A stretch of DNA of 64,000 bases from Bacteroidales bacterium. Lineage in GTDB: Bacteria > Bacteroidota > Bacteroidia > Bacteroidales > F082. The notes below the pieces were generated by a model. It did not search any database. It had not been told where the DNA came from and was given only the letters and a program-made list of their open reading frames with translations. How positions within the stretch are numbered: the first letter of the stretch is position 1; every line of letters begins with the position of its first letter. Below are positions 45,068 to 60,580 of the stretch, piece by piece. A program made the position numbers and the translations under genes. Location of the stretch: the NCBI GenBank assembly GCA_016291135.1, contig JAEFAE010000001.1:62001-126000 (forward strand), in the 5' to 3' direction.

Positions 45068-45110
45068 ATGTTTTTCTTCTTTACTTTTCCCATCGATGAA
45101 AAAGTATCCT

Positions 45111-45118
45111 TACCTTTG
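45111..45118 (+). promoter_or_regulatory. Bacteroidota -7 element for the M20 amidohydrolase
   Basis: TACCTTTG, a perfect match, 19 bases before the ATG at 45138. It lies inside the frame upstream of 45138, which rules out the earlier in-frame ATG at 45096 as the start. Confidence 0.6.
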
Positions 45119-45137
45119 CGAAACAACAGCAAGCCTT

Positions 45138-46268
45138 ATGGAGAACCTCATTGAATTACGACATATCCTACACGCCCATCCCGAGTTGTCGGGCAACGAA
45201 AAGCTCACCAACAAGATCCTGAACGAATGGGTAAGACAGACCCGGCCGGACAGGCTGATCGAAAAGATCGGCGGCTACGGACTGGCAGCCATATATAAAG
45301 GTGCCAAACCCGGAAAGCGCATCCTCATCCGCGGCGACATCGACGCGCTGCACATCCCTGAGCCGAACGACCTCCCCTACCGCTCACAAAATCCAGGCGT
45401 GTCGCACAAATGCGGGCATGACGGCCACGCCACCATCCTCTGCGGACTGGCCCAGTGGCTCGGCGAACAACGGCCCGACCAAGGCGAGGTGGTGTTGCTG
45501 TTCCAACCTGCCGAAGAGACCGGACAAGGGGCCAAAGCGATCTTGGAAGACCCTTTGTTTGAGCAGATCAAACCCGATGTCGCCTACGGGCTGCACAACC
45601 TGCCCGGCTTCGAGAAAGGGAAAGTGATGTGGCGTCAGGGCTGCTTTGCAGCAGCTTCCTTCGGACTGAAGCTCTGCTTCGACGGCCGCACCGCCCACGC
45701 CTCGCAGCCGGAGACAGGCCACAGCCCCGCGGAGCTGATGGCCCTGCTCATCCACCAGCTGGAGAAGAAACGGGAGCTATTAAAAGAGGTGAAGCCCTTG
45801 ACCACCTTCGTCATCACCCACGCCGTGTTGGGCGAGGAGACCTTCGGCGTGGCCCCAGGCCACGCCGAACTCTGGCTCACCTTGCGCAGCTACGACGACC
45901 GCAACCTGGCGCTGATGGCCGCTCAGGTCATCGACCTCTGCCGCGCCAAAGCCAAAGACCATCTCTTCGACTTCAGCTTTTCCGAGCACGAGGCCTTCGC
46001 CGCCACCAACTGCGACAACCGTTGCATCGACCTGATCCGGCAGGCCGCCACCCACTTGGAGCTCAACCTCGGCCAGCTGGAAGAACCTTTCCGTTGGTCG
46101 GAGGACTTCGGCCGCTTCGGCAGCGTCTGCCCCATCGGCTTCTTCGGACTGGGTTCGGGCTTGGAGCAGCCCGCTTTGCACGACCCGGAATTCGACTTCC
46201 CCGACGACATCCTGGAGATCGGGATGACGATGTTTTGGGAAATCATAAGGCAAGAGATAGAAGGATAA
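45138..46268 (+). CDS. M20-family amidohydrolase
   Basis: A 376-residue zinc-dependent hydrolase of N-acyl amino acids or related amides (M20D type, like HipO/AbgA). Metal ligands are visible: RGDIDALHIPE, SHKCGHDGHATIL (Cys/His cluster) and PAEETGQGAKAILED (catalytic Glu pair). The dimerisation domain follows at about residues 175-290 (LCFDGRTAHASQPETGHSPAEL). The protein opens MENLIELRHILHAHPELSGNE, which is typical. It has no signal peptide. The substrate is not deducible. The gene is the last host-type gene before the defence island. Confidence 0.9.
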   Translation: MENLIELRHILHAHPELSGNEKLTNKILNEWVRQTRPDRLIEKIGGYGLAAIYKGAKPGKRILIRGDIDALHIPEPNDLPYRSQNPGVSHKCGHDGHATILCGLAQWLGEQRPDQGEVVLLFQPAEETGQGAKAILEDPLFEQIKPDVAYGLHNLPGFEKGKVMWRQGCFAAASFGLKLCFDGRTAHASQPETGHSPAELMALLIHQLEKKRELLKEVKPLTTFVITHAVLGEETFGVAPGHAELWLTLRSYDDRNLALMAAQVIDLCRAKAKDHLFDFSFSEHEAFAATNCDNRCIDLIRQAATHLELNLGQLEEPFRWSEDFGRFGSVCPIGFFGLGSGLEQPALHDPEFDFPDDILEIGMTMFWEIIRQEIEG

Positions 46269-46346
46269 ACTCAAAAACCATCTATTTAGTAAATTTGATA
46301 CTAAGGAATTTTTGCAAAATTTACTTGGCTTTTTCAAAAAGTTTTG

Positions 46347-46354
46347 TATTTTTG
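46347..46354 (+). promoter_or_regulatory. Bacteroidota -7 element at the head of the RM/defence island
   Basis: TATTTTTG, a perfect match, ending 4 bases before the ATG at 46359. It is the only clear promoter upstream of the restriction-modification cluster and implies a near-leaderless first cistron. Confidence 0.6.
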
Positions 46355-46358
46355 CAAT

Positions 46359-46940
46359 ATGAATAATTGTAGTAACAAAAATACTAAACCCAAGAAGATT
46401 CTTTCTGAAATAGCAGAAGTGTTTTCAGGTGTATACCTGCAGGCTGAACCTTATGGAGACGTCTCCTATTTGCAGATAAAAGATCTGTTTTCTGAATTGC
46501 CCGAGAGAACAGCTTCAAAAGTCACTCTTTCTGCCAAAAACGAACGTTATTTGTTGGCAAAAGGCGACCTGTTGTTTGCCGGAAAAGGGACAACCTACCT
46601 TTGCGAAGTGTTTGACCTCGACATTCCAGCCATCGCCTCCACCACCTTATATGTTATACGCCTTGCCTCAAAAGACATCCTCCCCGATTACCTTTGCTGG
46701 TACTTGAATCAACCCAGCGTGATGGCGGCCATGAAAGCACAACAAGTAGGTACTGGCACACCGCTTATCCATAAACAAGTCGTTGAAAACTTTGAAATCC
46801 CCGTTCCAGATATAAACACACAACGTCAGATTGTTGAATTGGCAAAACTTCAAACCAGGGAAAAAGAGCTTTACAAGGCCATCGCCGAAAAACGAAACCT
46901 AATTACCAACCAACTCATAATGAATATATTAAACAAATAA
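46359..46940 (+). CDS. Half-size type I specificity subunit (single target-recognition domain)
   Basis: A 193-residue protein resembling one half of HsdS: an N-terminal TRD (KKILSEIAEVFSGVYLQAEP, DVSYLQIKDLFS, LAKGDLLFAGKGTTYLCEVF), the conserved turn IPVPDINTQRQIVELAKLQT, and one coiled-coil spacer (EKELYKAIAEKRNLITNQLI). Full HsdS has two TRDs and two spacers in about 400 residues. The stop is 2 bases before the hsdM ATG, so it is coupled to the methylase. The sequence is AT-rich compared with hsdM. It may dimerise to recognise a palindromic site, or pair with HsdM as an alternative specificity; both are inference. Confidence 0.8.
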   Translation: MNNCSNKNTKPKKILSEIAEVFSGVYLQAEPYGDVSYLQIKDLFSELPERTASKVTLSAKNERYLLAKGDLLFAGKGTTYLCEVFDLDIPAIASTTLYVIRLASKDILPDYLCWYLNQPSVMAAMKAQQVGTGTPLIHKQVVENFEIPVPDINTQRQIVELAKLQTREKELYKAIAEKRNLITNQLIMNILNK

Positions 46941-46942
46941 AT

Positions 46943-48472
46943 ATGGAAACCAAGAAAATCACCCAAGACGACATCAACCGCACCGTTTGGAAGGCTTGCG
47001 ACACCTTTCGCGGCGTCATTGACCCGAGCCAATACAAGGACTACATCCTTACCATGCTGTTCCTGAAATATGTCAGCGACGTGTATAAATCGAAATTGAA
47101 CGATTACCTTATTAAATATGAGGGAGAAGTGGAACGCGCCGAGCGCGCCATGCGCCACGAGCGTTTTGTGGTGCCCGAGAAGAGTTCGTTCGACTTCCTC
47201 TATGAACACCGCAACGCCTCCAACATCGGTGAGTTGATTGACGAGGCGCTGGCCGACCTCGAAGACGCCAACCGCGAGAAGATGAGCAGCGAGGACGGCA
47301 GCAGCATCTTCCGCAACATCAGCTTCAACAGCGCCAATCTGGGCGAGCCGAAAGAGAAAAACGCTCGATTGAAAAACCTGCTGCAAGATTTCAACGGGGT
47401 GGATTTGGACGAGTCGCATTTGGAGAACAACGACATCATTGGTGATGCCTATATGTACCTCGTCTCCACCTTTGCAGGGGAGGCTGGCAAGAAAGCGGGC
47501 GACTTCTTCACCCCTGCCGAGGTTTCCACCTTACTTGCAAAGCTGACCAAGAGCAAACCTGGCGCTCGCATCTGCGATGTCACCTGCGGCTCCGGCTCCT
47601 TGCTCATCAAGGCGGGTAAGGAAGTGGGCAACAACAACTTCTCGCTCTACGGGCAAGAAGTGAACGGCAGCACCTGGGCGTTGGCGATGATGAACATGTT
47701 TTTGCACGGCTTCGACAATGCCGTCATCCGCTGGGGTGACACCTTGCGTAACCCCAAGCTGAAAATGAACGACAAACTGATGAAGTTCGACACGGTGGTG
47801 GCCAATCCTCCTTTCAGCCTCGACAAATGGGGCGCGGAGGAAGCCGCGTCCGACCCTTACAACCGTTTCTGGCGCGGCATCCCGCCCAAGAGCAAGGGCG
47901 ACTGGGCCTTCATCAGCCACATGCTGGAGGTGGCTGACGACCAAAGCGGCAAAGTAGGTGTCATCATCCCCCACGGCGTGTTGTTCCGTGGCGGTAGCGA
48001 AGGTAAAATCCGTCAGTATATCCTTGAAAACGAGCACACCCTGGAGGCTGTCATCGGTTTGCCCGCCAACCTCTTCTATGGCACAGGCATCCCTGCTGCC
48101 ATTGCCATCTTCCGCAAGGGCCGTGGCTCGGAGAATGTGCTGTTCATCGATGCCAGCCGCGAATACGAAAACGGCAAGAACCAAAACAAGCTCCGCCCGC
48201 AGGACATCGAGCACATTGTGGGTATCTACCGCAAGTTTGCCGCTGGAGAGCTGCAGCCTGGCGTGGTGGAAGACAAATACGCCTACGTGGCCACCCCCAA
48301 CGAGATCCGCGAGAATGACTTCAACCTCAACATCCCGCGCTATGTGGACACCTACGAGGAAGAAGCCGGAATCGACATCCCTGCCGTGCAGAAAGAGATT
48401 GAGCAGCTGGAAACGGAATTGGCTGAGGTACAGGGAAAAATGAAGGAATATTTGAAGGAATTAGGATATTAA
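46943..48472 (+). CDS. hsdM: Type I restriction-modification methyltransferase subunit
   Basis: N6-adenine methyltransferase that, with HsdS, protects and recognises the site. The 509 residues contain the N-terminal HsdM helical domain (VWKACDTFRGVIDPSQYKDY), the SAM-binding motif ICDVTCGSGSLLIKAG (near 210) and the catalytic motif VVANPPFSLDKWG (NPPF at 288-291). The helical C-terminus ends in a coiled coil. KKAGDFFTPAEVSTLLAKL is also standard. The length fits. Base composition is close to the flanking chromosome, unlike the half-S gene before it and the Fic gene after it. Confidence 0.96.
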   Translation: METKKITQDDINRTVWKACDTFRGVIDPSQYKDYILTMLFLKYVSDVYKSKLNDYLIKYEGEVERAERAMRHERFVVPEKSSFDFLYEHRNASNIGELIDEALADLEDANREKMSSEDGSSIFRNISFNSANLGEPKEKNARLKNLLQDFNGVDLDESHLENNDIIGDAYMYLVSTFAGEAGKKAGDFFTPAEVSTLLAKLTKSKPGARICDVTCGSGSLLIKAGKEVGNNNFSLYGQEVNGSTWALAMMNMFLHGFDNAVIRWGDTLRNPKLKMNDKLMKFDTVVANPPFSLDKWGAEEAASDPYNRFWRGIPPKSKGDWAFISHMLEVADDQSGKVGVIIPHGVLFRGGSEGKIRQYILENEHTLEAVIGLPANLFYGTGIPAAIAIFRKGRGSENVLFIDASREYENGKNQNKLRPQDIEHIVGIYRKFAAGELQPGVVEDKYAYVATPNEIRENDFNLNIPRYVDTYEEEAGIDIPAVQKEIEQLETELAEVQGKMKEYLKELGY

Positions 48473-48486
48473 AACGACATAAAGTT

Positions 48487-49809
48487 ATGAACAAGATAGA
48501 AACACTATTCAAAGAATGGCAGTCGCTTCAACCAGTAAAAGAAGAGTATCAACAGAGACTGGACCAAAAATTTATGCTGGAGTTCAACTACAACTCCAAC
48601 CACATTGAAGGCAACACTCTTACTTACGGGCAAACCGAGATGCTATTGATGTTTGGTAAAGTGGTGGATGAAGCCAACATGAAGGATTTAGAAGAAATGA
48701 AGGCTTCCAATGTCGGATTGAAAATGGTAAAAGAGATGGCCTTGGATAAAGAGCAACCCCTCACCGAGTATTTCATTAGAACCCTACATAAGACTTTGCT
48801 TCGAGAGGATTATACTGTTTATCGTCAACTACCTGACGGCACGAGCACTTCGTATGTAGTACACGCAGGACAATACAAGACCCGCCCAAATTCTGTTATC
48901 ACTGCCACTGGTGAGCGCTTCGAATATGCCTCGCCCGAAGAAACGCCGGCCTTGATGACGGATTTGCTTCAATGGTATAACCAAGCCGAGACAGAAGGAA
49001 CCATGACACCCTTAGAACTGGCGTCATTGTTCCATTATCGCTATATCCGAATTCATCCATTTGAAGATGGAAACGGAAGAATCTCCCGACTAATGGTGAA
49101 CTATATTCTCTATCGTCATGGTTATCCCATGATCGTCGTAAAAAGCGCAGATAAAACAAACTATCTCACCGCACTTAACCGCTGCGATGTAACCACAGGC
49201 CCCGTCCCTTCCGATGGCGCTCACGCCGATCTATCCCAAATCACGCCCTTTGTGGATTACATGAGCAAATGTCTTTTTAGAGCATTGGAGATCAGCATTA
49301 AAGGTGCAAAAGGCGAACGCATTGAGGAAGCCGATGACTGGAAGAAGAATCTCAAAACCAAGTATCGCAATCAAATTAACAAACCAGAAGTTACCGATGA
49401 TATTGCGAACAGAATATTAGATGATGATTTCAAGACACTTCTTCAACAAATAGACAAAGAGTTATCTGAGTTTTATTCTGTATTTACTTCGGCTTATTGG
49501 ACACCATCAATTGGTAATTATACGACTTCCGAACAAGGCATTTATTATTCAGACATCAATTTCTATAAGGATTTCGGCAATATTAAATCATCGTTTTCGA
49601 TACGGATAGAATTAACCATCCAGCAATTCCTATACAAAACAACAATCTATAATGTCAGATATGGTTCAGGGTCTATCTTATACAATAAACAATATTCTTA
49701 CGACGAGCGCATTTCTGAACAGGACAGAACCGATATGGTGAACACGATCGGCAAGTACTTAAATTCTTTCATTGAAACCAAAGGAGGCTTCATAACGAAC
49801 AACAATTAA
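48487..49809 (+). CDS. Fic-domain protein inside the type I RM operon
   Basis: A 440-residue protein. Fic enzymes transfer AMP or another nucleotide group to hydroxyls of target proteins. The catalytic motif is complete: HPFEDGNGRISR (His190). A class II N-terminal inhibitory helix is suggested by FNYNSNHIEGNTL (Ser37 to Asn43). The C-terminal 160 residues (after about 280) are AT-rich in codons and not recognised; a winged-helix or effector role is possible. It lies 14 bases after hsdM and 3 bases before hsdS. Fic genes are recurrent cargo of type I loci, but their role there is not established. Confidence 0.9.
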   Translation: MNKIETLFKEWQSLQPVKEEYQQRLDQKFMLEFNYNSNHIEGNTLTYGQTEMLLMFGKVVDEANMKDLEEMKASNVGLKMVKEMALDKEQPLTEYFIRTLHKTLLREDYTVYRQLPDGTSTSYVVHAGQYKTRPNSVITATGERFEYASPEETPALMTDLLQWYNQAETEGTMTPLELASLFHYRYIRIHPFEDGNGRISRLMVNYILYRHGYPMIVVKSADKTNYLTALNRCDVTTGPVPSDGAHADLSQITPFVDYMSKCLFRALEISIKGAKGERIEEADDWKKNLKTKYRNQINKPEVTDDIANRILDDDFKTLLQQIDKELSEFYSVFTSAYWTPSIGNYTTSEQGIYYSDINFYKDFGNIKSSFSIRIELTIQQFLYKTTIYNVRYGSGSILYNKQYSYDERISEQDRTDMVNTIGKYLNSFIETKGGFITNNN

Positions 49810-49812
49810 TCA

Positions 49813-51036
49813 ATGGCTAAACAAACCCCACATATCCCCTCCGGCTACAAGCCCTCGCCCCTTGGCCCCATTCCCGAAGACTGGGAAGTGAAGAGACTAG
49901 GAGAAGTGTGCACTTTCTTGCGTACCAATACATTATCACGCAATCAACTTAATGATACGGATGGTGAAGTTCGAAATATTCATTATGGAGATGTTCTTAT
50001 AAAATATCCCTCAATTATTGATATTCGAAAACAATCTATTCCATTCGTAAATCAAGAAGATTACAAAGAATCGATGAATGATTTTATCGAAGATGGTGAT
50101 GTTGTACTGGCGGATACCGCAGAAGACGAAACAGTTGGAAAAGCATGTGAAATAGCCAATGTTGGTTCAGAAAAAATACTTTCCGGACTTCATACAATGT
50201 TGATTCGCCCTCAAAAAGGGTTATTTTCCCCTTGGTTTTTAGGCTATCAAGTTAATTCTGTTTCATACCGAAAACAATTAAATGCTCTAGTACAAGGTAT
50301 AAAAGTATGTTCATTAGGAAAGCAGGCAATCGCTAACACTTACTTCGCCATCCCCCCTCTCCACGAGCAGCAAAGCATCGTCTCCGTCCTTTCCCTTTGG
50401 GACACCGCCATCGCCAAGCAGACCGCCCTGATAGAGAAGCTCTCCCTGCGCAAGCGCGGCCTTATGCAGCAGCTGCTCACGGGGAAGAAGCGGCTGGAAG
50501 GGTTTAGTGGGGAGTGGAAAGAGGTGAGGTTGGGAGAAGTATGCCCAATGGAAAGAGGAGAAATGCTAACATCAGATAACTATTTGCAAGGAGATATTCC
50601 TGTGATTGCCGGAGGCAAAGAGCCAGCTGGATTTCATTCTTACGCAAATAGGCAAAAAAACACCATTACCATCAGTTGTTCAGGAGCAAGCGCAGGTTTT
50701 GTGGCATTTCATGATGTACCTATATTTGCCACAGACTGTTTCACTATATCAGAATCAAACGCCTATAACATTTGGTTCATTTATCATGTGCTCACTAATC
50801 TCCAAGAAAAAATATACAAGTTGCAAACCGGTGGAGCACAACCGCATGTACATCCCAAAGATGTATATCCAATGAAAATACATGTTCCAAGCATCAAAGA
50901 ACAAAACGCAATCGCTTCGGTTTTGGTCAATGCCGACAAAGAAATCGAGATACAAAAACAAAAGCTGGCGGCCATGCAGGAGCAGAAGAGGGGGCTGATG
51001 CAGGTGTTGCTAAGTGGAAAGAAAAGAATTAATTAA
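49813..51036 (+). CDS. hsdS: Type I restriction-modification specificity subunit (two TRDs)
   Basis: The 407-residue DNA-recognition subunit. It has an N-terminal anchor PIPEDWEVKRLGEV, TRD1 (about 25-165), spacer 1 with PPLHEQQSIVSVLSLWDTAI and RGLMQQLLTGKKRLEGF (about 178-235), TRD2 (about 236-360) and spacer 2 with EQNAIASVLVNADKEI and KRGLMQVLLSGKKRI. The two spacers are repeats of each other. The DNA for anchor and spacers is GC-rich, but both TRD segments are clearly AT-rich, as expected if the TRDs were swapped in by recombination. It follows the Fic gene by 3 bases. Confidence 0.95.
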   Translation: MAKQTPHIPSGYKPSPLGPIPEDWEVKRLGEVCTFLRTNTLSRNQLNDTDGEVRNIHYGDVLIKYPSIIDIRKQSIPFVNQEDYKESMNDFIEDGDVVLADTAEDETVGKACEIANVGSEKILSGLHTMLIRPQKGLFSPWFLGYQVNSVSYRKQLNALVQGIKVCSLGKQAIANTYFAIPPLHEQQSIVSVLSLWDTAIAKQTALIEKLSLRKRGLMQQLLTGKKRLEGFSGEWKEVRLGEVCPMERGEMLTSDNYLQGDIPVIAGGKEPAGFHSYANRQKNTITISCSGASAGFVAFHDVPIFATDCFTISESNAYNIWFIYHVLTNLQEKIYKLQTGGAQPHVHPKDVYPMKIHVPSIKEQNAIASVLVNADKEIEIQKQKLAAMQEQKRGLMQVLLSGKKRIN

Positions 51037-51048
51037 ATAACCAAGCAT

Positions 51049-54000
51049 ATGAAACTCACTGTGTTTTTTTCATGGCAATCGGACATTGACAACGATATAT
51101 TAAACAATAAAAGTTTTTTGTGTAATTGCATTAATTCAGCATTAAAAAACATTGAAAACAAAGGAGAGTTAAAGAATGTCTTCTTTGAATTCCAAGAAAG
51201 CACAAGTAACATTTCAGGTAACCCATCAATACCAAACACTCTAAATAAAAGGATTGAGAACTGTGACATTTTCATTGCAGACCTATCAATTGTTGACTCA
51301 TATTCTAGACTTGAATTATTCTTTCGTAAACTAAGAAAAGCAAAAACCAAACGAGGTCCAAACAATAATGTATTTGGAGAATATAATAAAGCCTTAGCTT
51401 CTCATTGTGAGGAACAAGTCATCACAATAATGAATTATTTAAATGGCAACCCAAAAGACAATAATAGTTTAATACCATTCGATGTCAGAGAGCGCAGGTT
51501 CCCAATAGGTTACCTTCTAAAATCAGATAAGGACATTGAGGAAGTCAAAAAATCTGTCATCACACAACTCGAAAACGCTATAAAAGGATGTGCTCTATCA
51601 GCAATACGGAACGCCAAATCCAAATACTATCCTTTTATAAATCACCAAGAACAACAAAAACAACTTAGAAATACAGGGGGATTTATTCAAACAGATGAAC
51701 TTTGCGCTTTTCAAAAGCAGATACGAGACAACAAAGAAAACATTCGTTTAATTGGTTTATCTGGATTAGGAAAGACCCGCATTGTTTTTGAATCTTTTAA
51801 AAATTCTCAAGATAACGTAAATTATTTATATTGCAATTGTTATGCCAACGAGGAATCTTCTATAATTGGTGCTGCCAATAAGATATATGAGGAGTTCAAA
51901 GAGGCTATAATTGTCATTGACAACTGCCCCAAAATGCTTCTTGAAAAACTGATTTTTATCAAGAACAACCTTCAAGCTCCCAATCCAATAATTGCAATTT
52001 ATCATGATGTAAACGAAACAAACATAAAGGATACTAATCAAATAATACTTCCAAGAAAGCAAATGGAGGTCGTTGAAGGTATTGTTGACAGATATAAATC
52101 ATATTATAAGCCAGAACAAAGAGATAGACTAATTGAGTTTTCCGGTGGCATTCCTCTTATTGCCATTGGATTATGCAAGTCTTTAAAAGAAGGTAATCCT
52201 ATTGGTGTATTCAATGACGAAACTTTGCTTTCAAAACTATTAGGCACTGATGAGAATTCAACCGAAAGAAAAATGCTTAGAAGTCTTTCTTTGTTTGATT
52301 TTATTGGCTCATTTGAAGAAGCACGAATTGAACTATCTTTTGTTGCAAACAACAAAGACATCACTCCTATTGAAGGGTCAACAGAAGTGATAATGAACAA
52401 TTTTGATAGTTTAATCAACAAATCAATCGAACGAGAAATAATGGAACGAAATGGTCGATTTGTTGCTATTAGACCAAAACCAATTGGCTTGCAACTTACT
52501 TCAGAATGGATTTCTGATTGTAGTTCTGATAGATTATTACGTGTTGTAAAAGCCATTCAAGAAAGTGATTGCGCAAAATCTCTGACAGAATCCTTTTCGC
52601 AACATTTTAGATATATGCAACATGATGAAAAGGCGGTATTGGTATTAGAATCTTTACTTCAACCCAACAGCCCTTTTCATAATGCGGAAGTCATAAATAC
52701 TGACTTGGGTTCACGGCTCTTCCGCTCATTTGTTGAAGTGAACCCAGTTGCTGTAGCAAATTGTCTTTGGTCTGTTTTCGGCAATATGAACACAGAACAA
52801 ATACATCAAATCAAGGAAGGAAGAAGAAATCTTGTTTGGACTCTTGAAAAACTATGTTTTGATGCTCGCACATACGAACTAGGAATGAAATTGCTGTTGA
52901 TGTTCGGCGTTGCAGAAAATGAAACTTGGGGAAATAACGCCTCAAATGAATTCATTCATTTATTTAAAATATATCTACCAGGGACACAAGCTTCTCTTTC
53001 CGAGAGATTAGAGGTATTAAGATGGGGCATCAATCATGCTCAATATAAGGAGTTATCTCTTAAGGCTTTAGCATCAGCTTTAGAAACCTCACATTTCACA
53101 TACATGAGCGGTGCGGAGAATCAAGGCACAAAACAGTTAGAACACTATCAACCTAAAATTTGGAAAGAAGTATTCGACTATTGGGCGGCGTGCATTGATA
53201 TTATCTCCAATGAAATCCTCAATGGGACCAACTACTCCGTGTTTTGTTGCGAAACACTTACTCAATGTATCTCGGGTCTATGCAGTTCAGGAGCGGCTTT
53301 TATCGTATTACCCGCAGTAAAAGAAATATGCAACAAAAAGAACAATGATTGGGACGATATGCTTAATAGCCTTATGTGGATAAAGACACACATATCATTG
53401 AAATTGGAAACAAATTGGCAGACTTTAATTGACGAAATGATTGAAGCGCTTACAAAAAAAGACTTCGTGTCCCGTTTTAAGGCTGTTGAGAATCGACATT
53501 ATTATTTGGAAGAAAAACTCAATTTCGAAGAACGAATAAAAAAACAGCAAGAAAAATACGAAGCTTATGCAAAAGAGTATGTTGAAAATGAATTTAACGA
53601 CGTCCCGACTCTATTAAAACTCTACCAAATTGACAGTACCTTTTCCCATCCTTTTGGATACACTATTGCAAAACTAATTGAACATAACCCCAACAAGCTT
53701 AGATGGTTTATTATCGCATCTATCGGTTGTTTTCACTCATTAGAAAAATACAATCCTTCTATTTTGTTTGATTTTGCAAGAGGACTTGATGGTGAAGCAT
53801 TTGACTATTTAGTTATATCTTTAGAGAAGGACGACAAATGTTCATACTTGTTGTTTTCCATACTTGCAAATCACGGAATAACCTTGCCAAACACTCAATT
53901 ACTATTTGAATTAGTAAGAAAAAGAACCGCTCACATTAGATCATTTTTAGATTTTTGGAGATATTCCAACAGTATTACAACTTCATCAGAAAAAGAAATA

Positions 54001-54822
54001 ATTGATTTCTTCGCCAACATAATCCACTGCAACCAAGATGGATTTGATGTTGTCGTTACCATGCTAAAAGACATGATGTATTTCGATAATAAACGGAATT
54101 ATGATGCTATTGCAGATTATATAATTTCTGAGTTTGAGAATAGGTACATTGCCGTTGATGTTTTTATGCAAAATAATGATTATTTAGAAGTTATCGAACA
54201 ATTATTAACGATATGCAACAAGTCAAAGCTAGCAGTTTTTATCAATAAAACCATAATAGAAATTTCAAAAAAGCCTGGTTCTCACATTTCAAGTGATTAT
54301 CGTATCGAACGTATCTATAGCATATTATTTGATAAGTACTTTAAAGATGTTTCCGACGATTTGTTTGCAGCATTAGTCTCAGCTAATCCGTTTACCGAAT
54401 TGTCGTTTCAGTTCTTATTGATGCCAAAAGAAGTTTATGATTTATCGCAAAAGCTCTTCCAAAAAGACAATCTTGATGTCATTCTTCAGTTTTGCGAAAA
54501 AACGCCACAAGCTCGAAACAGGATAATGAGATTGGTTCCTGCAATTCAAAATGAAGAATTCAGCCCCTTTACAATGGAATTGTTGAACAGATATGGTGAT
54601 GACGCTGATATGCTTAATAGTTTAAGCTGCAATATAGGTTCATTTGGTATTGTTGGATCCTTAATCCCGGCCTATGAAAGCAACAAGAAAACTCTATCTA
54701 CTTTATTGACACATTCAAATCCTAATGTGGTTGAATGGGCTCAAAAAAAGATAGCGCAATTAGATAAAGACATTGCATTTGAAAAAAAGAGAGAAGCCGA
54801 AAACAAGTTCTTATATGGTTAA
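51049..54822 (+). CDS. TIR-like/STAND NTPase defence protein (NLR-like)
   Basis: A 1257-residue protein with three parts. Residues 1-180 resemble the TIR-like (nucleotide-signal/NADase) domain of bacterial defence proteins: VFFSWQSDIDND at the first strand, NCDIFIADLSIVDS near 71-84, and GPNNNVFGEYNKAL (about 103-116) where Glu111 sits in the position of the conserved NVxxELGxA-type motif. Residues 185-480 are a STAND NTPase: Walker A GLSGLGKTR (236-244), Walker B AIIVIDNC (286-293) and a helical/winged end with FSGGIPLIAIGLCKSL. Residues 480-1257 are helical with no recognised motif, the usual place for a sensor. It is AT-rich and lies 12 bases after hsdS. The role is inferred. Confidence 0.8.
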   Translation: MKLTVFFSWQSDIDNDILNNKSFLCNCINSALKNIENKGELKNVFFEFQESTSNISGNPSIPNTLNKRIENCDIFIADLSIVDSYSRLELFFRKLRKAKTKRGPNNNVFGEYNKALASHCEEQVITIMNYLNGNPKDNNSLIPFDVRERRFPIGYLLKSDKDIEEVKKSVITQLENAIKGCALSAIRNAKSKYYPFINHQEQQKQLRNTGGFIQTDELCAFQKQIRDNKENIRLIGLSGLGKTRIVFESFKNSQDNVNYLYCNCYANEESSIIGAANKIYEEFKEAIIVIDNCPKMLLEKLIFIKNNLQAPNPIIAIYHDVNETNIKDTNQIILPRKQMEVVEGIVDRYKSYYKPEQRDRLIEFSGGIPLIAIGLCKSLKEGNPIGVFNDETLLSKLLGTDENSTERKMLRSLSLFDFIGSFEEARIELSFVANNKDITPIEGSTEVIMNNFDSLINKSIEREIMERNGRFVAIRPKPIGLQLTSEWISDCSSDRLLRVVKAIQESDCAKSLTESFSQHFRYMQHDEKAVLVLESLLQPNSPFHNAEVINTDLGSRLFRSFVEVNPVAVANCLWSVFGNMNTEQIHQIKEGRRNLVWTLEKLCFDARTYELGMKLLLMFGVAENETWGNNASNEFIHLFKIYLPGTQASLSERLEVLRWGINHAQYKELSLKALASALETSHFTYMSGAENQGTKQLEHYQPKIWKEVFDYWAACIDIISNEILNGTNYSVFCCETLTQCISGLCSSGAAFIVLPAVKEICNKKNNDWDDMLNSLMWIKTHISLKLETNWQTLIDEMIEALTKKDFVSRFKAVENRHYYLEEKLNFEERIKKQQEKYEAYAKEYVENEFNDVPTLLKLYQIDSTFSHPFGYTIAKLIEHNPNKLRWFIIASIGCFHSLEKYNPSILFDFARGLDGEAFDYLVISLEKDDKCSYLLFSILANHGITLPNTQLLFELVRKRTAHIRSFLDFWRYSNSITTSSEKEIIDFFANIIHCNQDGFDVVVTMLKDMMYFDNKRNYDAIADYIISEFENRYIAVDVFMQNNDYLEVIEQLLTICNKSKLAVFINKTIIEISKKPGSHISSDYRIERIYSILFDKYFKDVSDDLFAALVSANPFTELSFQFLLMPKEVYDLSQKLFQKDNLDVILQFCEKTPQARNRIMRLVPAIQNEEFSPFTMELLNRYGDDADMLNSLSCNIGSFGIVGSLIPAYESNKKTLSTLLTHSNPNVVEWAQKKIAQLDKDIAFEKKREAENKFLYG

Positions 54823-54858
54823 CTCAAGCATTGATTAAATACAAAAGACACCCTCACT

Positions 54859-55128
54859 ATGATAACAAAACCCGAACTGCAAGAATTACTGCAAAGCACC
54901 GAGACCTATCGCGTGGGGCGCACCAGTTCCACCAGTGTCCCTCAAGATGTCACTCAAGATGTCACTCAAGGTGGCACCAAAGGTGGCACTCAAGAAATAT
55001 AAATGGAAACCGTTTAAGTTATTGATTATATTGTTGAGAATAAACATATTACAAACGACAAAAAAATTTTGAAAGACCTTTACGAAATACAATATCTCGA
55101 CATCGAATTTAAATACTCGACATCATGA
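54859..55128 (+). pseudogene. Relic of an AlbA_2-type regulator gene
   Basis: From ATG 54859 the frame reads MITKPELQELLQSTETYRVG and then RTSSTSVPQDVTQDVTQGGT to a TAA at 55000. The first 25 residues match the start of AlbA_2-domain/RecG-like ATP-binding proteins (usually ...STETYRVERTTST). The text then jumps straight to the four-residue-repeat linker found before the C-terminal winged helix of those proteins, so some 400 residues are missing. The same frame continues past TAA at 55000 and 55015 as VIDYIVENKHITNDKKIL, like a winged helix, until TGA 55126, which overlaps the ATG of the intact AlbA_2 gene. Confidence 0.6.
54944..54993 (+). repeat. Short 12-base tandem repeat in the relic
   Basis: GATGTCACTCAA occurs twice, followed by GGTGGCACCAAA and GGTGGCACTCAA. 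These encode DVTQ, DVTQ, GGTK and GGTQ. The 12-base period and Gln-ending unit resemble the array at 56645-56716. Confidence 0.75.
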
Positions 55129-56645
55129 CCCTCCCCGTAAACATAGAATCGCTGATTGACGGCCGTGTGGTCGAAAGCGACAGAATAGAATTCAAGAAAG
55201 GATGGAATCCCGATGCCATCTACCGCACCATCTGTGCCTTTGCCAATGACTTTGAAGACATTGGCGGCGGTTACATTGTGGTAGGTGTCGAAGAAGAGAA
55301 GGGCAGAGCCAAACGGCCTGTCTTTGGATTAGACATCAACGAATTAGACACCATCCAGAAGTCGATGGTAGGCTTCAACAATTTGATTCAGCCTTATTAC
55401 CAACCACGTACCGCCATCGAAGATGTTGACGGAAAGAAAGTTTTCGTTATTTGGGCGACACCAGGCGACCGCCGCCCATACAAAGTACCCGACAACGTCA
55501 CGGCAAAGCATAAGGAATACAACTATTATATACGATACAACTCCAGTACGATAATAGCCAAAGGCGACTATGAGATTGAGCTACTAAACATGGCCAACAG
55601 AGTACCTTTCGATGACAGAGGGAACCTATCAGCAACAACTAGCGATGTATCAATGTTGCTCATTAGGGATTATTTGACCCAAACCGGCAGCAAACTGGTT
55701 GAGCAACTTGAGACTAGTTCTCCTCTGCAAATTCTTCGTCAAATGGATTTAGTCGAAGGTCCTAATGAAAACATCAGGGTAAAAAACATTGCCCTAATGC
55801 TTTTCTCATACCAACCGGAAAAATATTTTCCAGGGACTCAAGTGGATATTGTCATCTACCCAAAAGGGAAAGATGTAGATCCAGATAATTTCATAGAGAT
55901 AAACCCCATAAAAGGACCCGTGCATCAAATTATCAGAAGAACGCTAGACTATGTTAGGACGATGGTGATTCGGCAGAAAGTTACCAAAGTTTCTACCAAA
56001 GCCGAAGCGAACAAAACTTCCAACTACCCCTATCAAGCATTAGAAGAACTCATTGTGAACGCATTATACCACCGCTCATATCAAGAGCGAGAGCCTGTCG
56101 AAATCTCTATCATGCCTGAACATATTGAAATCATTAGTTACAATGGAGCAGACCGAAGCATTAAGCTTGAGGATTTAAGGGCTGGCAAAAGAATCCATGC
56201 ACGAAGATACAGGAACAGAAGATTAGGAGATTTCTTAAAAGAACTCGACTTAACAGAAGGCCGTGGCACAGGCATACCGACCGTCAAAAAAGAATTGGAG
56301 AAAAACGGTTCAGAAAACGCTTCTTATGAATCCGATGAAGATAGAACCTACTTCTATGTATCTATTCCTTGCCATAAAGATTTCGCATGCAAAGAACTTA
56401 TGATTGATGAAGAAGGACATATCCGCGACCGAAAACTCACTATCGCAACAGCCAACGACATACGAAAACAAATATTCTCTTTAATTGTTGAAAACAATCG
56501 CATAACCAGACGAGAGTTATCCGAATCAATCGGAATCAACCAATCAGCCATCCAAAAACACATCGAGGCCCTCATCAACAATGGAAACATCAAAAGAGAA
56601 GGGAAAACCCGTGCAAGTTATTTCATTATTTTGAAAGATTTCTAG
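55125..56645 (+). CDS. AlbA_2 domain / GHKL-ATPase transcriptional regulator-like protein
   Basis: A 506-residue protein often annotated as putative RecG-like or ATP-binding protein. The N-terminal AlbA_2 domain (about 1-150) has SDRIEFKKGWNPDAIYRTIC, AFANDFEDIGGGYIVVGVEE and FVIWATPGDRRPYKV. The C-terminal half of the ATPase-like domain contains ALEELIVNALYHRSYQEREP (Asn of the Bergerat fold) and LTEGRGTGIPTVKKEL. A winged helix follows at about 440-500 (NNRITRRELSESIGINQSAI). Such proteins accompany defence loci, and their role may be regulation. The gene follows the relic and ends just where the 12-base array begins. Confidence 0.85.
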   Translation: MTLPVNIESLIDGRVVESDRIEFKKGWNPDAIYRTICAFANDFEDIGGGYIVVGVEEEKGRAKRPVFGLDINELDTIQKSMVGFNNLIQPYYQPRTAIEDVDGKKVFVIWATPGDRRPYKVPDNVTAKHKEYNYYIRYNSSTIIAKGDYEIELLNMANRVPFDDRGNLSATTSDVSMLLIRDYLTQTGSKLVEQLETSSPLQILRQMDLVEGPNENIRVKNIALMLFSYQPEKYFPGTQVDIVIYPKGKDVDPDNFIEINPIKGPVHQIIRRTLDYVRTMVIRQKVTKVSTKAEANKTSNYPYQALEELIVNALYHRSYQEREPVEISIMPEHIEIISYNGADRSIKLEDLRAGKRIHARRYRNRRLGDFLKELDLTEGRGTGIPTVKKELEKNGSENASYESDEDRTYFYVSIPCHKDFACKELMIDEEGHIRDRKLTIATANDIRKQIFSLIVENNRITRRELSESIGINQSAIQKHIEALINNGNIKREGKTRASYFIILKDF

Positions 56646-56716
56646 GTGGTCAAATAAGTGGTCAAATAAGTGGTCAAATAAGTGGTCAAATAGGTGGTCA
56701 AATAGGTGGTCAAAAA
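56645..56716 (+). repeat. Six-copy 12-base tandem array before hsdR
   Basis: Units of the form (A/G)GTGGTCAAATA repeat six times; the last unit ends CAAAAA. The array begins on the last base of the AlbA_2 stop codon and ends 9 bases before the hsdR ATG. In the hsdR frame the units spell GGQI/SGQI, the linker text seen in AlbA_2-family proteins. The array is thus probably a leftover linker of another family member, not an independent element. Unit-number change would keep the frame. Confidence 0.85.
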
Positions 56717-56725
56717 AGAAAAACA

Positions 56726-59700
56726 ATGGACAGAATCTCCTTCAAAGAAAACGATATCAGCCAAAAACCGGCATTGGAACTGCTGCAAAAGCTGGGCTAT
56801 CAGTACCTCTCGCCAGAAGAGGCGCTGGAATTGCGCGGCGGAAAAACCTCCAACGTGCTGCTGGAAGAGGTGCTGCGGCGACAGTTGCGGGCACTGAACT
56901 CCATCCGCATCGGTAGCCATAGCGAGGCGCGCTTCTCGGAGCAAAACATCGAGAATGGCGTCATCGCCATGCGCAACGTGCCCATGGAAGGCGGTTACCT
57001 CAACGGCAACGAGGCGGTGTATAACATGCTCACTCTCGGAAAAGCCTTTGAGCAAAGCATCGACGGCGACAAGAAGAGCTACACCATGCGCTACATCGAC
57101 TGGCAACATCCCGAGAACAATGTCTATCACGTCACCGAGGAGTTTGCCGTCACACGTTCTGGTTCCAGCGATACCTACCGTCCTGACATCGTGCTCTTCG
57201 TGAACGGCATCCCCCTGGTCATCATTGAATGCAAGCGTCCCGACATCAAAGGCGCCGAGGAACAAGCCGTATCGCAACACCTGCGCAACCAAAAAGACGA
57301 CGGCATCCGTAGCCTCTATGTCTATAGTGCCCTGCTTTTGTCCATCGGCAACAGCTTCGGCAGCTATGCCACCACGGGATCGGCCGCCCAGTTCTGGAGC
57401 AAATGGCATGAGATGTTCATCAACAAAGAGGCAGAGATGGCGTATCACAAGCGGTTGCTGGAACTGGTCAACGAAGGTCGCGAGGAAATGCGCGCCCCCA
57501 CCCTGCAAGACGAATACCTCTACAACCTCTGTCGCCCCGAACGCCTATTGGAACTCATCTTCCACTTTACCATCTTCGATGCTGGCATCAAGAAACTGGC
57601 ACGCTATCAGCAGTTTTTCACCGTGAAAGAAACCGTCGAACGCGTGAAGACCATCGAAGCCGGGCACAGAAACGGTGGTGTGGTATGGCATACCCAAGGC
57701 AGCGGCAAATCGCTGACCATGGTGATGCTGGCCCAGAAAATCGCACAAGAGCCCAGCATCCACAACCCGCGCATCGCGTTGGTCACCGACCGCACCGACT
57801 TGGACGACCAAATCACCAAGACTTTCCGCAAATGCGGCAAACAGGTGGAGAACGCCACTACGGGAAAACGACTTGTGGAACTGCTGGAAAGCAACACCGA
57901 TGCCGTCATCACTACCGTCATCAACAAGTTTGCCACGGCCATCAAAAAGATCAAGCAACCCCTCACCGACCCCAACATCTTCATCCTGATCGACGAGGCA
58001 CACCGCAGCCAATACAAGGAACTGGCCATCCAGATGAACCGCGTGCTGCCCAACGCTTGCAAAATCGCCTTCACCGGAACGCCTTTGATGAAGAAAGACA
58101 AGAACACCGCCCTGACCTTTGGCGGCATCATCAAACCCGTATATACCGTCAAGCAAGCCGTTGACGACAAGGCCGTTGTGCCGCTGCTTTACGAAGGACG
58201 CCTTTCGCCCCAAACGGTGAGCGAAGGCCCCATCGACAACTTCTTCAGCCAAGCCTGCGAAGACCTCACCTATGAGCAGTCCACCGACTTAAAGAAAAAA
58301 TTCTCGCGCACCGACATCCTCAACCAAACCGAGCAACGCATCTATTCCATCGCCTCCGACATTTCCGACCATTACTCGAAAAACTGGCAAGGCACAGGCT
58401 TCAAAGCCATGCTGGTAACGCCCATCAAACGCGTGGCCATCCTATACAAAAAGTATTTGGACAAAATCGGGAAAGTATCGTCGGAAGTACTCATTACCGC
58501 ACCGGATGACCGCGAAGGCGAAGAGATTGCCTACGGAGGTACGCCACAAGAAGTAAAAGCGTTCTGGAAACAAATGATGGACGAGCACGGAACTCCTGCC
58601 AAATACCAGGAGAATCTCATCTCGAGGTTCAAAAACCAAGAGTTTCCAGAAATCATGATTGTGGTGGACAAGTTGCTCACTGGATTCGACGAGCCCAAAG
58701 TGGCTATCATGTACCTCGACCGCAACCTCAAAGGCCATACCCTGCTGCAAGCCGTTGCGCGCGTAAACCGTACTTGCGAAGGGAAAGACTACGGTTATAT
58801 CATTGACTATTACGGCGTGTTGAGGGAGCTGGACGATGCTTTGAGCATCTACTCCGAATACGACGAGGACGACCGAGAGGTGTTCCGCGACACCTTGGTG
58901 CCTGTGATTGACAAAATCGCCGAGCTGCCCCAACGATACAACGACTTGTGGGACATGTTCAAGACCATCCCTAACAAGCGCGACTTGGAAGCCTACGCCC
59001 AATCGCTGCGTTTGGAAGACCGACGTCACGAGTTTTACGACCGACTCACTGCGTATTCTTCGGTGTTGCAACTGGCCTTATCCACAATGGAATTCCATGA
59101 GAATACCGACGAAAAAACCATACAACGCTATAAAGACGACCTGAACATGTTCGCCAAACTGCGCACTGCCGTACAACTCCGCTATTCCGACACGGTCGAT
59201 TACAAGAAATACGAGGCACGCATTGAGAAACTCATCAACCATCATGTGGAGAGCGATGCCGTAAGGGTCATCACCAATCTCGTCAACATCTTCGACAAGG
59301 AGAACTTCAAGAAAGAGGTGGACAGCATCGTGGGCACAGCCGCCAAAGCCGACACCATCGCCACACGCACTTCAAAATACATCCGTGAGAACATGGACTC
59401 CGATCCGGCGTTTTACAAGAAATTCTCCCAACTCATCAAGGAAGCCATCGAGTTGTATGAACAAGGGCGCCTAACCGACAATGAGTATTTAGAGAAAATG
59501 ATGCAATACAAAGAAGACGTGCTCAACCATACGGATAGCGAACTCCCCTCTGAACTGGAACACAACAACGCGGCAAAGGCCTATTTCGGTATTGCTTTGG
59601 AGAACTACAAGCGACTCTTCCCCGACATGCCCGTCCGAGATATGGCTTTGGAAACCACTCGTGCCTTCGATGAAATCATTCGCAAGACAGTCATTGTCGA

Positions 59701-59878
59701 CGGCTCTGTCCTAGTGGACTGGCAATCGAAAAGCGACATCATCGGCCGTTTGAAAATCGAACTGGAAGACGAGCTTATCGACAACATCAAACGCAAATAC
59801 GGCTTGAATTTCGCATTCAGCGATATGGACATCATCATTGACGGCTGCGTCGACGTGGCAAAAATCTGGATCCGATGA
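56726..59878 (+). CDS. hsdR: Type I restriction endonuclease/translocase subunit
   Basis: DNA translocase and nuclease subunit of the type I enzyme. The 1050 residues contain an N-terminal PD-(D/E)xK nuclease domain, RPDIVLFVNGIPLVIIECKR (Asp154, Glu168, Lys170). The SF2 motor follows: Walker A VVWHTQGSGKSLTMVMLAQK (about 317-336), DEAH box ILIDEAHRSQYKEL (about 419-432), and motif VI ARVNRTCEGKDYGYIIDY. The C-terminal helical domain binds HsdM. Length and order are those of active HsdR. Composition is closer to the host chromosome than that of the STAND and AlbA_2 genes. It overlaps the metallopeptidase gene by ATGA. Confidence 0.96.
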   Translation: MDRISFKENDISQKPALELLQKLGYQYLSPEEALELRGGKTSNVLLEEVLRRQLRALNSIRIGSHSEARFSEQNIENGVIAMRNVPMEGGYLNGNEAVYNMLTLGKAFEQSIDGDKKSYTMRYIDWQHPENNVYHVTEEFAVTRSGSSDTYRPDIVLFVNGIPLVIIECKRPDIKGAEEQAVSQHLRNQKDDGIRSLYVYSALLLSIGNSFGSYATTGSAAQFWSKWHEMFINKEAEMAYHKRLLELVNEGREEMRAPTLQDEYLYNLCRPERLLELIFHFTIFDAGIKKLARYQQFFTVKETVERVKTIEAGHRNGGVVWHTQGSGKSLTMVMLAQKIAQEPSIHNPRIALVTDRTDLDDQITKTFRKCGKQVENATTGKRLVELLESNTDAVITTVINKFATAIKKIKQPLTDPNIFILIDEAHRSQYKELAIQMNRVLPNACKIAFTGTPLMKKDKNTALTFGGIIKPVYTVKQAVDDKAVVPLLYEGRLSPQTVSEGPIDNFFSQACEDLTYEQSTDLKKKFSRTDILNQTEQRIYSIASDISDHYSKNWQGTGFKAMLVTPIKRVAILYKKYLDKIGKVSSEVLITAPDDREGEEIAYGGTPQEVKAFWKQMMDEHGTPAKYQENLISRFKNQEFPEIMIVVDKLLTGFDEPKVAIMYLDRNLKGHTLLQAVARVNRTCEGKDYGYIIDYYGVLRELDDALSIYSEYDEDDREVFRDTLVPVIDKIAELPQRYNDLWDMFKTIPNKRDLEAYAQSLRLEDRRHEFYDRLTAYSSVLQLALSTMEFHENTDEKTIQRYKDDLNMFAKLRTAVQLRYSDTVDYKKYEARIEKLINHHVESDAVRVITNLVNIFDKENFKKEVDSIVGTAAKADTIATRTSKYIRENMDSDPAFYKKFSQLIKEAIELYEQGRLTDNEYLEKMMQYKEDVLNHTDSELPSELEHNNAAKAYFGIALENYKRLFPDMPVRDMALETTRAFDEIIRKTVIVDGSVLVDWQSKSDIIGRLKIELEDELIDNIKRKYGLNFAFSDMDIIIDGCVDVAKIWIR

Positions 59879-60573
59879 CAAAAGACAGCATTCAATACGG
59901 CACCACTCTCATCGAATATGACATCGAATTTGTCGACCGAAAAACACTTGGCATCAAAGTGCTTCCCGATGGCGCCGTTTCCTTGAACGCGCCTATCAAT
60001 GCAACGCTTGATGACATCCGCAACAAAGTGCATCACAGAGCCGCTTGGATCCTTCGTCAGAAGCGCTATTTTGAATCTTTTGGCACTCCGACTACCGAAA
60101 GACAATACATCAGTGGCGAGTCGCATCTCTATCTGGGACGGCAATATATGTTGAAAATCAAGGAAGGGAGGAGCAATGTGGTGCATTACCAAAACAACAT
60201 CCTAGAGGTTGTATGCCAAAACAAAAAAGAAGCTGCTAAAGTGTTACAACTTTGGTATCTGGAACGGGCACAGATCAAGTTTCCGGAATATGCCAAGCCC
60301 ATTATTGAGCAATTTGTCGCATACGGAGTGCAGCCGAAAAGAATAGGCATAAGAAAGATGGAAAAACGATGGGGGTATTGCACTACTGACGGCAACATCT
60401 ACTTGAATCCCAGACTGATCTGCGCTCCAAGATGCTGTATCGAATACGTCATCACTCATGAACTTTGCCATTTGGTGCATCGCAATCATAACAAAGAATT
60501 CTATACCCTATTGAGCAAAGAAATGCCTCATTGGGAAAAATGGAAAGCTAAACTTGAACGATTAATGAATTAA
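59875..60573 (+). CDS. YgjP-like metallopeptidase (DUF45/M48-type)
   Basis: A 232-residue protein with the zinc motif YVITHELCHLVHRNHNKEFY (HELCH at about 199-203) and the upstream signature KRWGYCTTDGNIYLNPRLIC. YgjP-type proteins frequently accompany type I restriction genes as the last cistron. Their substrate is unknown; a protease or a structural partner is possible. Coupling to hsdR by a 4-base overlap supports a role with the RM complex. It is the last gene of the island by overlap, with the next ATG 8 bases after its stop. Confidence 0.9.
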   Translation: MTKDSIQYGTTLIEYDIEFVDRKTLGIKVLPDGAVSLNAPINATLDDIRNKVHHRAAWILRQKRYFESFGTPTTERQYISGESHLYLGRQYMLKIKEGRSNVVHYQNNILEVVCQNKKEAAKVLQLWYLERAQIKFPEYAKPIIEQFVAYGVQPKRIGIRKMEKRWGYCTTDGNIYLNPRLICAPRCCIEYVITHELCHLVHRNHNKEFYTLLSKEMPHWEKWKAKLERLMN

Positions 60574-60580
60574 GAAGAAT

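What the first reader, a model, noticed from the sequence alone, without database searches (positions are those of the whole stretch)
51049..54822. Giant TIR-like/STAND protein embedded in a type I restriction operon
The sequence shows a 1257-residue protein with an N-terminal TIR-like domain (FSWQSD; Glu111 in an NVFGEYNKAL motif), a STAND-type P-loop (GLSGLGKTR, 236-244) and a long helical C-terminus, lying 12 bases after hsdS in a cluster that ends with hsdR. Established knowledge: TIR-STAND proteins are bacterial NLR-like defence genes that sense phage proteins and deplete NAD or signal by nucleotides. Inference: the RM cluster carries an abortive-infection arm as cargo, perhaps triggered when phage disarm the RM enzyme. 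The C-terminal 770 residues match nothing I recognise and may be a new sensor class.
Basis: partly seen in the sequence, partly recalled or inferred. Interest (0 to 1): 0.85.

Follow-up and report, generated by a model that had tools for sequence, protein, structure and literature searches.

The report
Phage-alarm protein in a swappable slot
A bacterium carries a large protein, built like the immune alarm receptors of plants and animals, in a gene slot inside a DNA-cutting defence system; related species keep the same cutter but fill that slot with different genes, several of them defence genes.

Summary
ORF 51049-54822 encodes a TIR domain (1-190; predicted fold near SfSTING's TIR), a STAND-type NTPase (about 195-490) and a long alpha-solenoid. 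Two corrections: the Walker-A lysine is K242, not 241, and the C-terminus is no orphan. Residues about 195-1257 are the core of the PD-lambda-4_A family (PADLOC, E=3e-48), which carries at least five kinds of N-terminus. In the window's clade residues 1-700 stay 75-94% identical while 701-1257 fall to 54-68%; alleles are recombinants, one sharing the N-half at 100% and the C-half at 53%, as expected of an exchangeable sensor.

The context matters more. A 14.3-kb island (half-hsdS, hsdM, hsdS, hsdR, ygjP) lies between two genes that adjoin in 7 of 7 inspected relatives. The chassis is readable through the hsdS-hsdR slot in 13 other species of the genus: HsdM and HsdR are kept, the slot holds other genes (Thoeris-like, AbiTii, PifA-like, unknowns). 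Embedded cargo in type I RM loci is known; the chassis comparison and mosaic sensors are the new parts. No activity was tested.

The parts
46259..60577 (.). RM island inserted between the M20 peptidase gene (45096-46268) and the 526-aa gene (60581-62161); boundaries good to about 10-20 bases
   Evidence: in 7 of 7 fetched relatives the two flanking genes adjoin with none of the window's hsd genes between; homology to the empty sites ends at 46244-46258 and resumes from 60577 at the earliest
46344..46940 (+). half-size HsdS (198 aa, one specificity domain), part of the chassis
   Evidence: Pfam Methylase_S 6.9e-12; present before hsdM in the relatives whose sequence reaches there
46943..48472 (+). 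HsdM, chassis gene with host-like GC3 (0.745)
   Evidence: TIGR00497 above cut-off; in genus genomes 96-98% identical in 8 others, 92% in 3, 78-85% in 3 and a partial copy at 99%; GC3
48487..49809 (+). slot 1 cargo: Fic protein (AT-rich)
   Evidence: Pfam Fic 7.7e-20, PADLOC PDC-S04 1.4e-35; other genes there in other chassis copies, e.g. Bro-N (L108, L115), YhcG (L110), AlbA-type (L113)
49813..51036 (+). HsdS, with conserved blocks about 49827-49910, 50347-50520 and 50899-51029; the rest diverges
   Evidence: Pfam Methylase_S 1.2e-34; DNA blocks against relatives
51049..54822 (+). TIR-STAND-solenoid protein, 1257 aa: slot 2 payload
   Evidence: PD-Lambda-4_A E=3e-48 over 218-719
51049..51618 (+). 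TIR domain, residues 1-190, catalytic-type Glu111 (51379-51381)
51631..52518 (+). STAND-type NTPase with helical and winged-helix-like parts, residues about 195-490; Walker A 236-244 (K242), Walker B-like IIVIDNC 287-293
52519..54819 (+). alpha-solenoid, residues about 491-1257; 701-1257 is the variable, exchanged part
   Evidence: model pLDDT 90.3; generic HEAT/ARM matches; identity drop and recombinants
54854..55000 (+). relic: the start of another AlbA-type gene joined to a piece of its repeat linker
   Evidence: 89-91% identity over 75-80 bp to AlbA gene starts in L107, L109, L113; linker piece matches L107
55125..56645 (+). second slot 2 gene: Schlafen/AlbA_2 + HATPase_c_4 + winged-helix protein
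   Evidence: Pfam
56726..59878 (+). HsdR, chassis gene
   Evidence: TIGR00348 above cut-off; 93-98% identical in 8 other genus genomes, 85% in 3, 59-72% in 3; DNA homology restarts at 56726-56735 in 10 of 11 loci compared, at 57048 in L118
59875..60573 (+). YgjP-like metallopeptidase gene, last gene of the chassis
   Evidence: Pfam YgjP-like 1.2e-54; directly after hsdR in the chassis copies whose sequence reaches beyond hsdR

Best explanation
The protein is an NLR-like anti-phage alarm: a TIR-armed member of the PD-lambda-4_A STAND family. In the uninfected cell it is held off by its STAND NTPase. A phage product binds the C-terminal solenoid, the NTPase exchanges nucleotide and oligomerises, the TIR domains are brought together and become an NADase, and the cell stops growing or dies before phage release. 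The gene is the current payload of an exchangeable slot between hsdS and hsdR of a type I RM island. That island passes between species as a conserved frame (HsdM, HsdR, YgjP) with changing specificity subunit and cargo, so a cell gains a cutter and a second-line system together. Shown here: domain folds (predicted), conserved catalytic-type residues, changing N-termini on a conserved core, recombinant alleles, island insertion, differing cargo in one chassis. Inferred: ligand binding, oligomerisation, NADase activity, abortive infection, and that exchange is by homologous recombination.
Confidence: 0.68

Rival explanations
1. RM guard, PrrC-style: the protein senses inhibition of the neighbouring type I enzyme by phage anti-restriction proteins and then fires.
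For: It lies 12 bases after hsdS and before hsdR; the order hsdM-hsdS-TIR-STAND-hsdR occurs with distant hsd genes in L007 and L008. PrrC, embedded in a type IC locus, is a known guard (passages of PMC12707154).
Against: Of 26 TIR-type loci from genome contigs only L007 and L008 were found between hsdS and hsdR (six of the 26 have under 5 kb of flank on a side and the HMMs are home-made, so this is a lower bound; L013 and L017 have other HsdM-like genes nearby). The slot takes unrelated systems. The C-terminal half is exchanged between close alleles, although HsdM and HsdR are nearly constant in the close relatives.
Confidence: 0.12
2. The TIR makes a nucleotide signal instead of depleting NAD+, with the neighbouring AlbA/Schlafen-HATPase or Fic protein as receiver.
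For: Thoeris-type TIRs signal by nucleotides (recalled); Thoeris-like genes occupy the same slot in L109 and L111.
Against: The other N-termini recognised on the core are hydrolase-type enzymes, which suggests direct action (inference). TIR-STAND homologues L007 and L008 have no AlbA or Fic gene detected beside them.
Confidence: 0.12
3. The N-terminal domain is a nucleotide-binding or deoxyribosyltransferase-like relative without NADase activity, acting only as an oligomerisation module.
For: Weak Pfam Nuc_deoxyrib_tr matches in relatives (E 5e-4 to 0.055); the window's own domain has no Pfam hit.
Against: PF10137 scores better in the same proteins and passes its cut-off in L124 and L074; E111 and N107 in 35/35 rows; match to SfSTING's TIR.
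Confidence: 0.08
4. Passenger gene: AT-rich cargo caught in the island, no longer selected.
For: GC3 0.30 against 0.70-0.75 for hsdM/hsdR; decayed cargo pieces in the same slot.
Against: Intact 1257-codon frame; catalytic-type and P-loop residues kept; eight homologues at 69-95% identity over the full length.
Confidence: 0.05

Closest known systems
PD-lambda-4 (PADLOC PD-Lambda-4_A; named after the E. coli selection of Vassallo et al. 2022, PMC9519451)
   Same: The NTPase core and solenoid: residues 218-719 match the profile at E=3e-48, and relative L012 matches 219-1277 of 1283.
   Different: The N-terminus: the profile's first 220 positions fit L039 (3-1276), not the TIR. No PD-Lambda-4_B partner found.
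Avs/AVAST and bacterial NACHT (bNACHT) proteins
   Same: Effector - STAND NTPase - helical repeat C-terminus; Foldseek hits to Avs3, Avs4 and Avs5 structures.
   Different: PADLOC models other than PD-Lambda-4_A did not hit the window protein at E<=0.01; the ligand is unknown.
STING-TIR and CAP12/Pycsar TIR effectors (PF10137)
   Same: TIR fold and an N-V-x-x-E motif (shared motif recalled).
   Different: Fused to a STAND NTPase instead of a STING sensor or a separate cyclase partner.
Type I RM loci with embedded defence genes: prrC (PMC12707154), DarTG2 between hsdS and hsdR in EPEC (PMC12255303), TgvAB (PMC11411939), RloF (cited in PMC11411939); passages seen
   Same: Defence cargo inside a type I RM operon, in several cases between hsdS and hsdR.
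   Different: Here one chassis with near-constant HsdM/HsdR is compared across one genus with different payloads, its empty chromosomal site and DNA breakpoints.
Thoeris
   Same: TIR-based; Thoeris-like genes occupy the same slot in L109 and L111.
   Different: The window's protein is single-chain and its TIR is nearer the CAP12/STING kind than ThsB.

Membership tests
PD-lambda-4 (PD-Lambda-4_A) | Match to the A-protein profile over NTPase and C-terminus | tested here: met
   PDLC03991 E=3e-48 over 218-719; TIR-type L012 219-1277, E=7.5e-61; control rings in 0 of 14 genomes
PD-lambda-4 (PD-Lambda-4_A) | N-terminal domain of the prototype (profile 1-220) | tested here: not met
   alignment starts at profile position 223; the TIR is there instead, while L039 aligns from 3
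PD-lambda-4 (PD-Lambda-4_A) | Partner gene B (existence recalled from the PADLOC naming) | tested here: inconclusive
   no PD-Lambda-4_B hit in the 10 window genes scanned; I have not seen that B is obligatory
PD-lambda-4 (PD-Lambda-4_A) | Protection against phage | not testable with these tools
   needs plaque assays
TIR domain, CAP12/Pycsar/STING type (PF10137) | Profile match above cut-off | tested here: inconclusive
   window protein none, L009 none; L074 27.2 and L124 27.0 vs cut-off 24.7; L004 23.0, L125 21.6, L043 20.7, P0134 18.9
TIR domain, CAP12/Pycsar/STING type (PF10137) | TIR fold | tested here: met
TIR domain, CAP12/Pycsar/STING type (PF10137) | Catalytic glutamate | tested here: met
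   E111 in 35/35 rows; its catalytic role is by analogy (recalled)
STAND NTPase (NLR-like) | Walker A and Walker B | tested here: met
   K242, D291 in 35/35 rows
STAND NTPase (NLR-like) | NBD followed by helical and winged-helix parts as in Apaf-1/NLRC4 | tested here: inconclusive
Avs/AVAST | Sequence match to Avs models | tested here: inconclusive
   only PD-Lambda-4_A models hit at E<=0.01 in PADLOC; that PADLOC holds Avs models is recalled
Avs/AVAST | Recognises terminase or portal | not testable with these tools
   no ligand data
Type I RM locus with embedded defence cargo | Cargo between hsdS and hsdR, same strand, close spacing | tested here: met
   window 12 bp after hsdS; 14 of 14 readable slots filled, gap -20 to 85 bp

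The most novel reading that the evidence does not exclude
The type I RM island is a dedicated loading bay. Homologous recombination at near-constant hsdM/hsdS-repeat and hsdR flanks swaps second-line immune payloads between species as cassettes, and the TIR-STAND payload itself is assembled combinatorially, with its sensor half (breaks near residues 420-550) exchanged between alleles like an HsdS specificity domain. That would give natural populations a shared, shuffled repertoire of phage sensors.
Probability: 0.4. Interest if true: 0.8.

Novelty: new variant of a known kind. Interest (0 to 1): 0.64.

Why it matters
It ties an unnamed TIR-STAND family, mostly of Bacteroidota, to a core named after an experimentally selected defence system, and shows by comparison which half varies, so the phage ligand can be sought with natural alleles that differ mainly in the sensor. 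The repeated chassis gives a simple rule for finding new defence genes: read what lies between hsdS and hsdR. Eight of the 14 readable slots (L107, L110, L113, L114, L115, L117, L118, L119) hold at least one gene that matched no Pfam or PADLOC model at E<=0.001.

Tried and rejected

Rows dropped: P0122 spoiled A4, so the TIR alignment was rebuilt as A5. Of 166 related loci 80 were returned. Of 75 C-terminal rows 65 were aligned with the window. Of 14 other genomes with the downstream 526-aa gene I fetched seven for the empty-site test; one more (G028, L111) has the island, six were not read. Chassis slots cut by contig or fetch ends (L112, L116, L133, L135, L136, L137) are left out of the 14. 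L003 and L056 are the same gene, so the metallophosphoesterase count of 7 is 6 genes.
Full report
What is there. Window 51049-54822 (+) encodes one intact 1257-aa protein, 12 bases after the hsdS stop. Genes by Pfam, PADLOC and NCBIfam: half HsdS, HsdM, Fic, HsdS, this protein, an AlbA/Schlafen-HATPase-winged-helix protein, HsdR and YgjP. GC3 is 0.745 for hsdM and 0.70 for hsdR (0.76-0.79 for three flanking genes) but 0.30 for this gene and 0.41-0.49 for Fic, hsdS, AlbA and YgjP. So the cargo is compositionally foreign between two host-like RM genes.

Family. PADLOC matches residues 218-719 to PD-Lambda-4_A at E=3e-48; the same profile rings in 0 of 14 control genomes. TIR-type L012 matches 219-1277 of the 1283-position profile; proteins on Lelliottia and Enterobacter plasmids match it at E<=1.9e-180; L039 matches it from position 3. 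PD-lambda-4 takes its name from a functional selection with phage lambda-vir in E. coli (naming rule in passages of PMC9519451). The name itself was not found in that main text but appears in a table of PMC10952713 as a P-loop NTPase system. In 86 loci the core of about residues 195-1262 recurs while the N-terminus changes. 30 have a TIR-type N-terminus (this counts the window's own copy, two TIR-only proteins and one genus homologue). 49 others had an N-terminus long enough to cluster: 40 in one linked cluster that mixes alpha/beta-hydrolases and an unnamed type, 7 metallophosphoesterases (6 genes, since L003 is L056) and 2 trypsin-like singletons. The remaining 7 are cut short. Pfam on nine representatives: six had a hydrolase, phosphoesterase or trypsin-like match (the trypsin-like ones and one hydrolase below cut-off), three no informative match. 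By record titles the hosts include Bacteroidota, Pseudomonadota, Bacillota and archaea; 25 of the 26 TIR-type loci there are titled as Bacteroidota. 55 of 72,556 plasmid records carry a relative of part of the protein. It is rare: in 393 genomes of the order 9 match at E<=1e-20 (own included; 3 TIR-STAND, 2 core with another N-terminus, 4 TIR part only); in 395 of the phylum 8 match at E<=1e-60, and the seven others all lack the TIR part.

Variable half. Among the eight nearest alleles (P0001-P0008) mean pairwise identity per 50 residues is 75-94% up to residue 700 and 54-68% after. Alleles are recombinant. P0005 follows P0001 at 316 of 317 informative sites up to residue 541 and at 6 of 271 from 552 on, where it follows P0010 (0 of 5000 shuffles reach the statistic). 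P0001 itself follows P0005 at 50 of 50 sites up to 418 and P0002 at 291 of 292 from 454 on. Of six such tests five had 0 of 5000 shuffles and one (P0009) 23 of 5000. Among 128 full-length homologues, 260 pairs share at least one half at 85% or more; 22 of these differ by 25 points or more between halves (20 of them within P0001-P0010), 135 by less than 10. So strong discordance is mostly a feature of the window's own clade. These are database protein clusters, probably from metagenome contigs, so chimeric assembly is possible, though several have multiple members.

Island and slot. The downstream 526-aa gene is matched in 14 other genus genomes (15 of 99 with own). In the seven of these that I fetched for the purpose it adjoins the M20 peptidase gene with none of the window's hsd genes between. 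So about 46259-60577 is an insertion. HsdR at E<=1e-100 is in 15 of 99 genus genomes, own included: 93-98% identical in 8 others, 85% in 3, 59-72% in 3. HsdM at E<=1e-200 is in 16 of 99, own included. Six fetched relatives (L107, L109, L110, L111, L113, L114) carry the island after the same M20 gene; L115, L117 and L120 show none of these flanks, so they sit elsewhere. Pooled over the six, four-fold-site identity to the window is 69.8% for hsdM and 71.4% for hsdR (single values 60-80%), against 49-57% for four flanking genes (single values 44-60%, and 74% for one short gene in L114) and 58.7% for ygjP. This suggests exchange of the chassis between species, though codon constraint is not excluded. 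Where slot 1 differs, chassis homology stops at the hsdM stop; it resumes in three hsdS blocks, and restarts at 56726-56735, the hsdR start, in 10 of 11 loci compared.

Slot contents. In the 14 copies with hsdS to hsdR readable (window plus L107-L111, L113-L115, L117-L120, L134) the slot always holds same-strand genes, the first -20 to 85 bp after hsdS. They are: the TIR-STAND and an AlbA gene (window; no TIR-STAND match in the other 13); ThsB-type TIRs plus a TIR-SLOG protein, i.e. Thoeris-like (L109, L111); AbiTii (L114, L118); a KAP NTPase like PifA with DUF2971 (L120); a HAD-like protein (L108); DUF3800 and weakly GNAT-like genes (L110; also beside other cargo in L111 (DUF3800 only) and L114); unnamed genes (L107, L113, L115, L117, L119), with another AlbA-type gene in L107, L109 and L113; and a kinase/response-regulator-like pair in L134. 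Recognised defence families are thus in 6 of 14, counting the window. Some cargo pieces are shared between species at 91-99% DNA identity over 0.75-2.6 kb, others at 67-83%, and decayed AlbA pieces lie in the window's own slot.

Elsewhere. The order hsdM-hsdS-TIR-STAND-hsdR recurs with distant hsd genes in L007 (AbiEi/AbiEii-type genes before hsdR) and L008 (hsdR overlapping by one base). So 3 of 27 TIR-type loci (window plus 26 from genome contigs) were found between hsdS and hsdR, a lower bound since six flanks are short. Most homologues therefore seem to work outside RM loci, which weighs against a strict RM-guard role. Which slots the mosaic alleles P0002-P0010 occupy is unknown.

Known background. 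Cargo in type I RM loci is established: PrrC (passages of PMC12707154); DarTG2 between hsdS and hsdR, with that site called a potential recombination hotspot (passages of PMC12255303); TgvAB and RloF (passages of PMC11411939). [quoted passage not shown] What I did not find in the searches listed under Tried and rejected is the one-chassis-many-payloads comparison, the tie of this TIR-STAND family to PD-lambda-4_A, or its mosaic sensor halves.

Mechanism, likelihoods (my estimates). TIR-STAND-solenoid architecture: about 0.95. Anti-phage role: about 0.8. NADase abortive infection triggered through the solenoid: about 0.65. RM guard: about 0.12. Exchangeable payload slot in this genus: about 0.85.

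Noticed in passing
window 56643-56718: Tandem copies of a 12-bp unit (TAAGTGGTCAAA-like) between the AlbA stop and the hsdR start; either decayed coding linker or repeated binding sites.
   Followed up: no
window 54854-55000 and 55083-55165: Relics of earlier cargo: the start and linker of another AlbA-type gene and short pieces matching cargo flanks of L110 and L114.
   Followed up: partly
L109 and L111, slot between hsdS and hsdR: Thoeris-like gene set (three ThsB-type TIR genes in L109, two in L111, plus a TIR-SLOG protein) inside a type I RM operon, 98.5% identical over 2.6 kb between two species.
   Followed up: partly
L113:9882-11132 (-): A 416-aa ORF on the opposite strand between hsdM and hsdS with no Pfam match; it overlaps a stretch that matches Fic on the other strand, so it may be spurious.
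   Followed up: no
L134:7595-9983: Slot cargo that looks like a histidine kinase-like protein and a response regulator, not a known defence pair.
   Followed up: no
L115:13106-14821 and L117:12444-14156: A 570-aa AT-rich slot protein in two chassis copies; no Pfam or PADLOC match for the L115 copy; a candidate new defence gene.
   Followed up: no
L137:3453-7685: Slot 1 of another chassis copy holds a protein with Mrr-type restriction and M78 peptidase domains, and slot 2 begins with an AAA_15 ATPase.
   Followed up: no
L125 (Ruegeria plasmid): A protein with this TIR domain but no STAND core directly follows AbiEi and AbiEii genes; AbiEi/AbiEii-type genes also sit beside the TIR-STAND in L007.
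   Followed up: no
L054: A core homologue (its N-terminus was not scanned) lies after a methylase, a YhcG nuclease and a helicase-like gene and is followed by an HsdR-like gene and YgjP, the same hsdR-ygjP end as in the window.
   Followed up: partly
L003 (G056, same genus as the window): Identical over 4971 bases to L056, titled Bacteroidia MAG RUG11511; RUG as a rumen series is recalled.
   Followed up: yes
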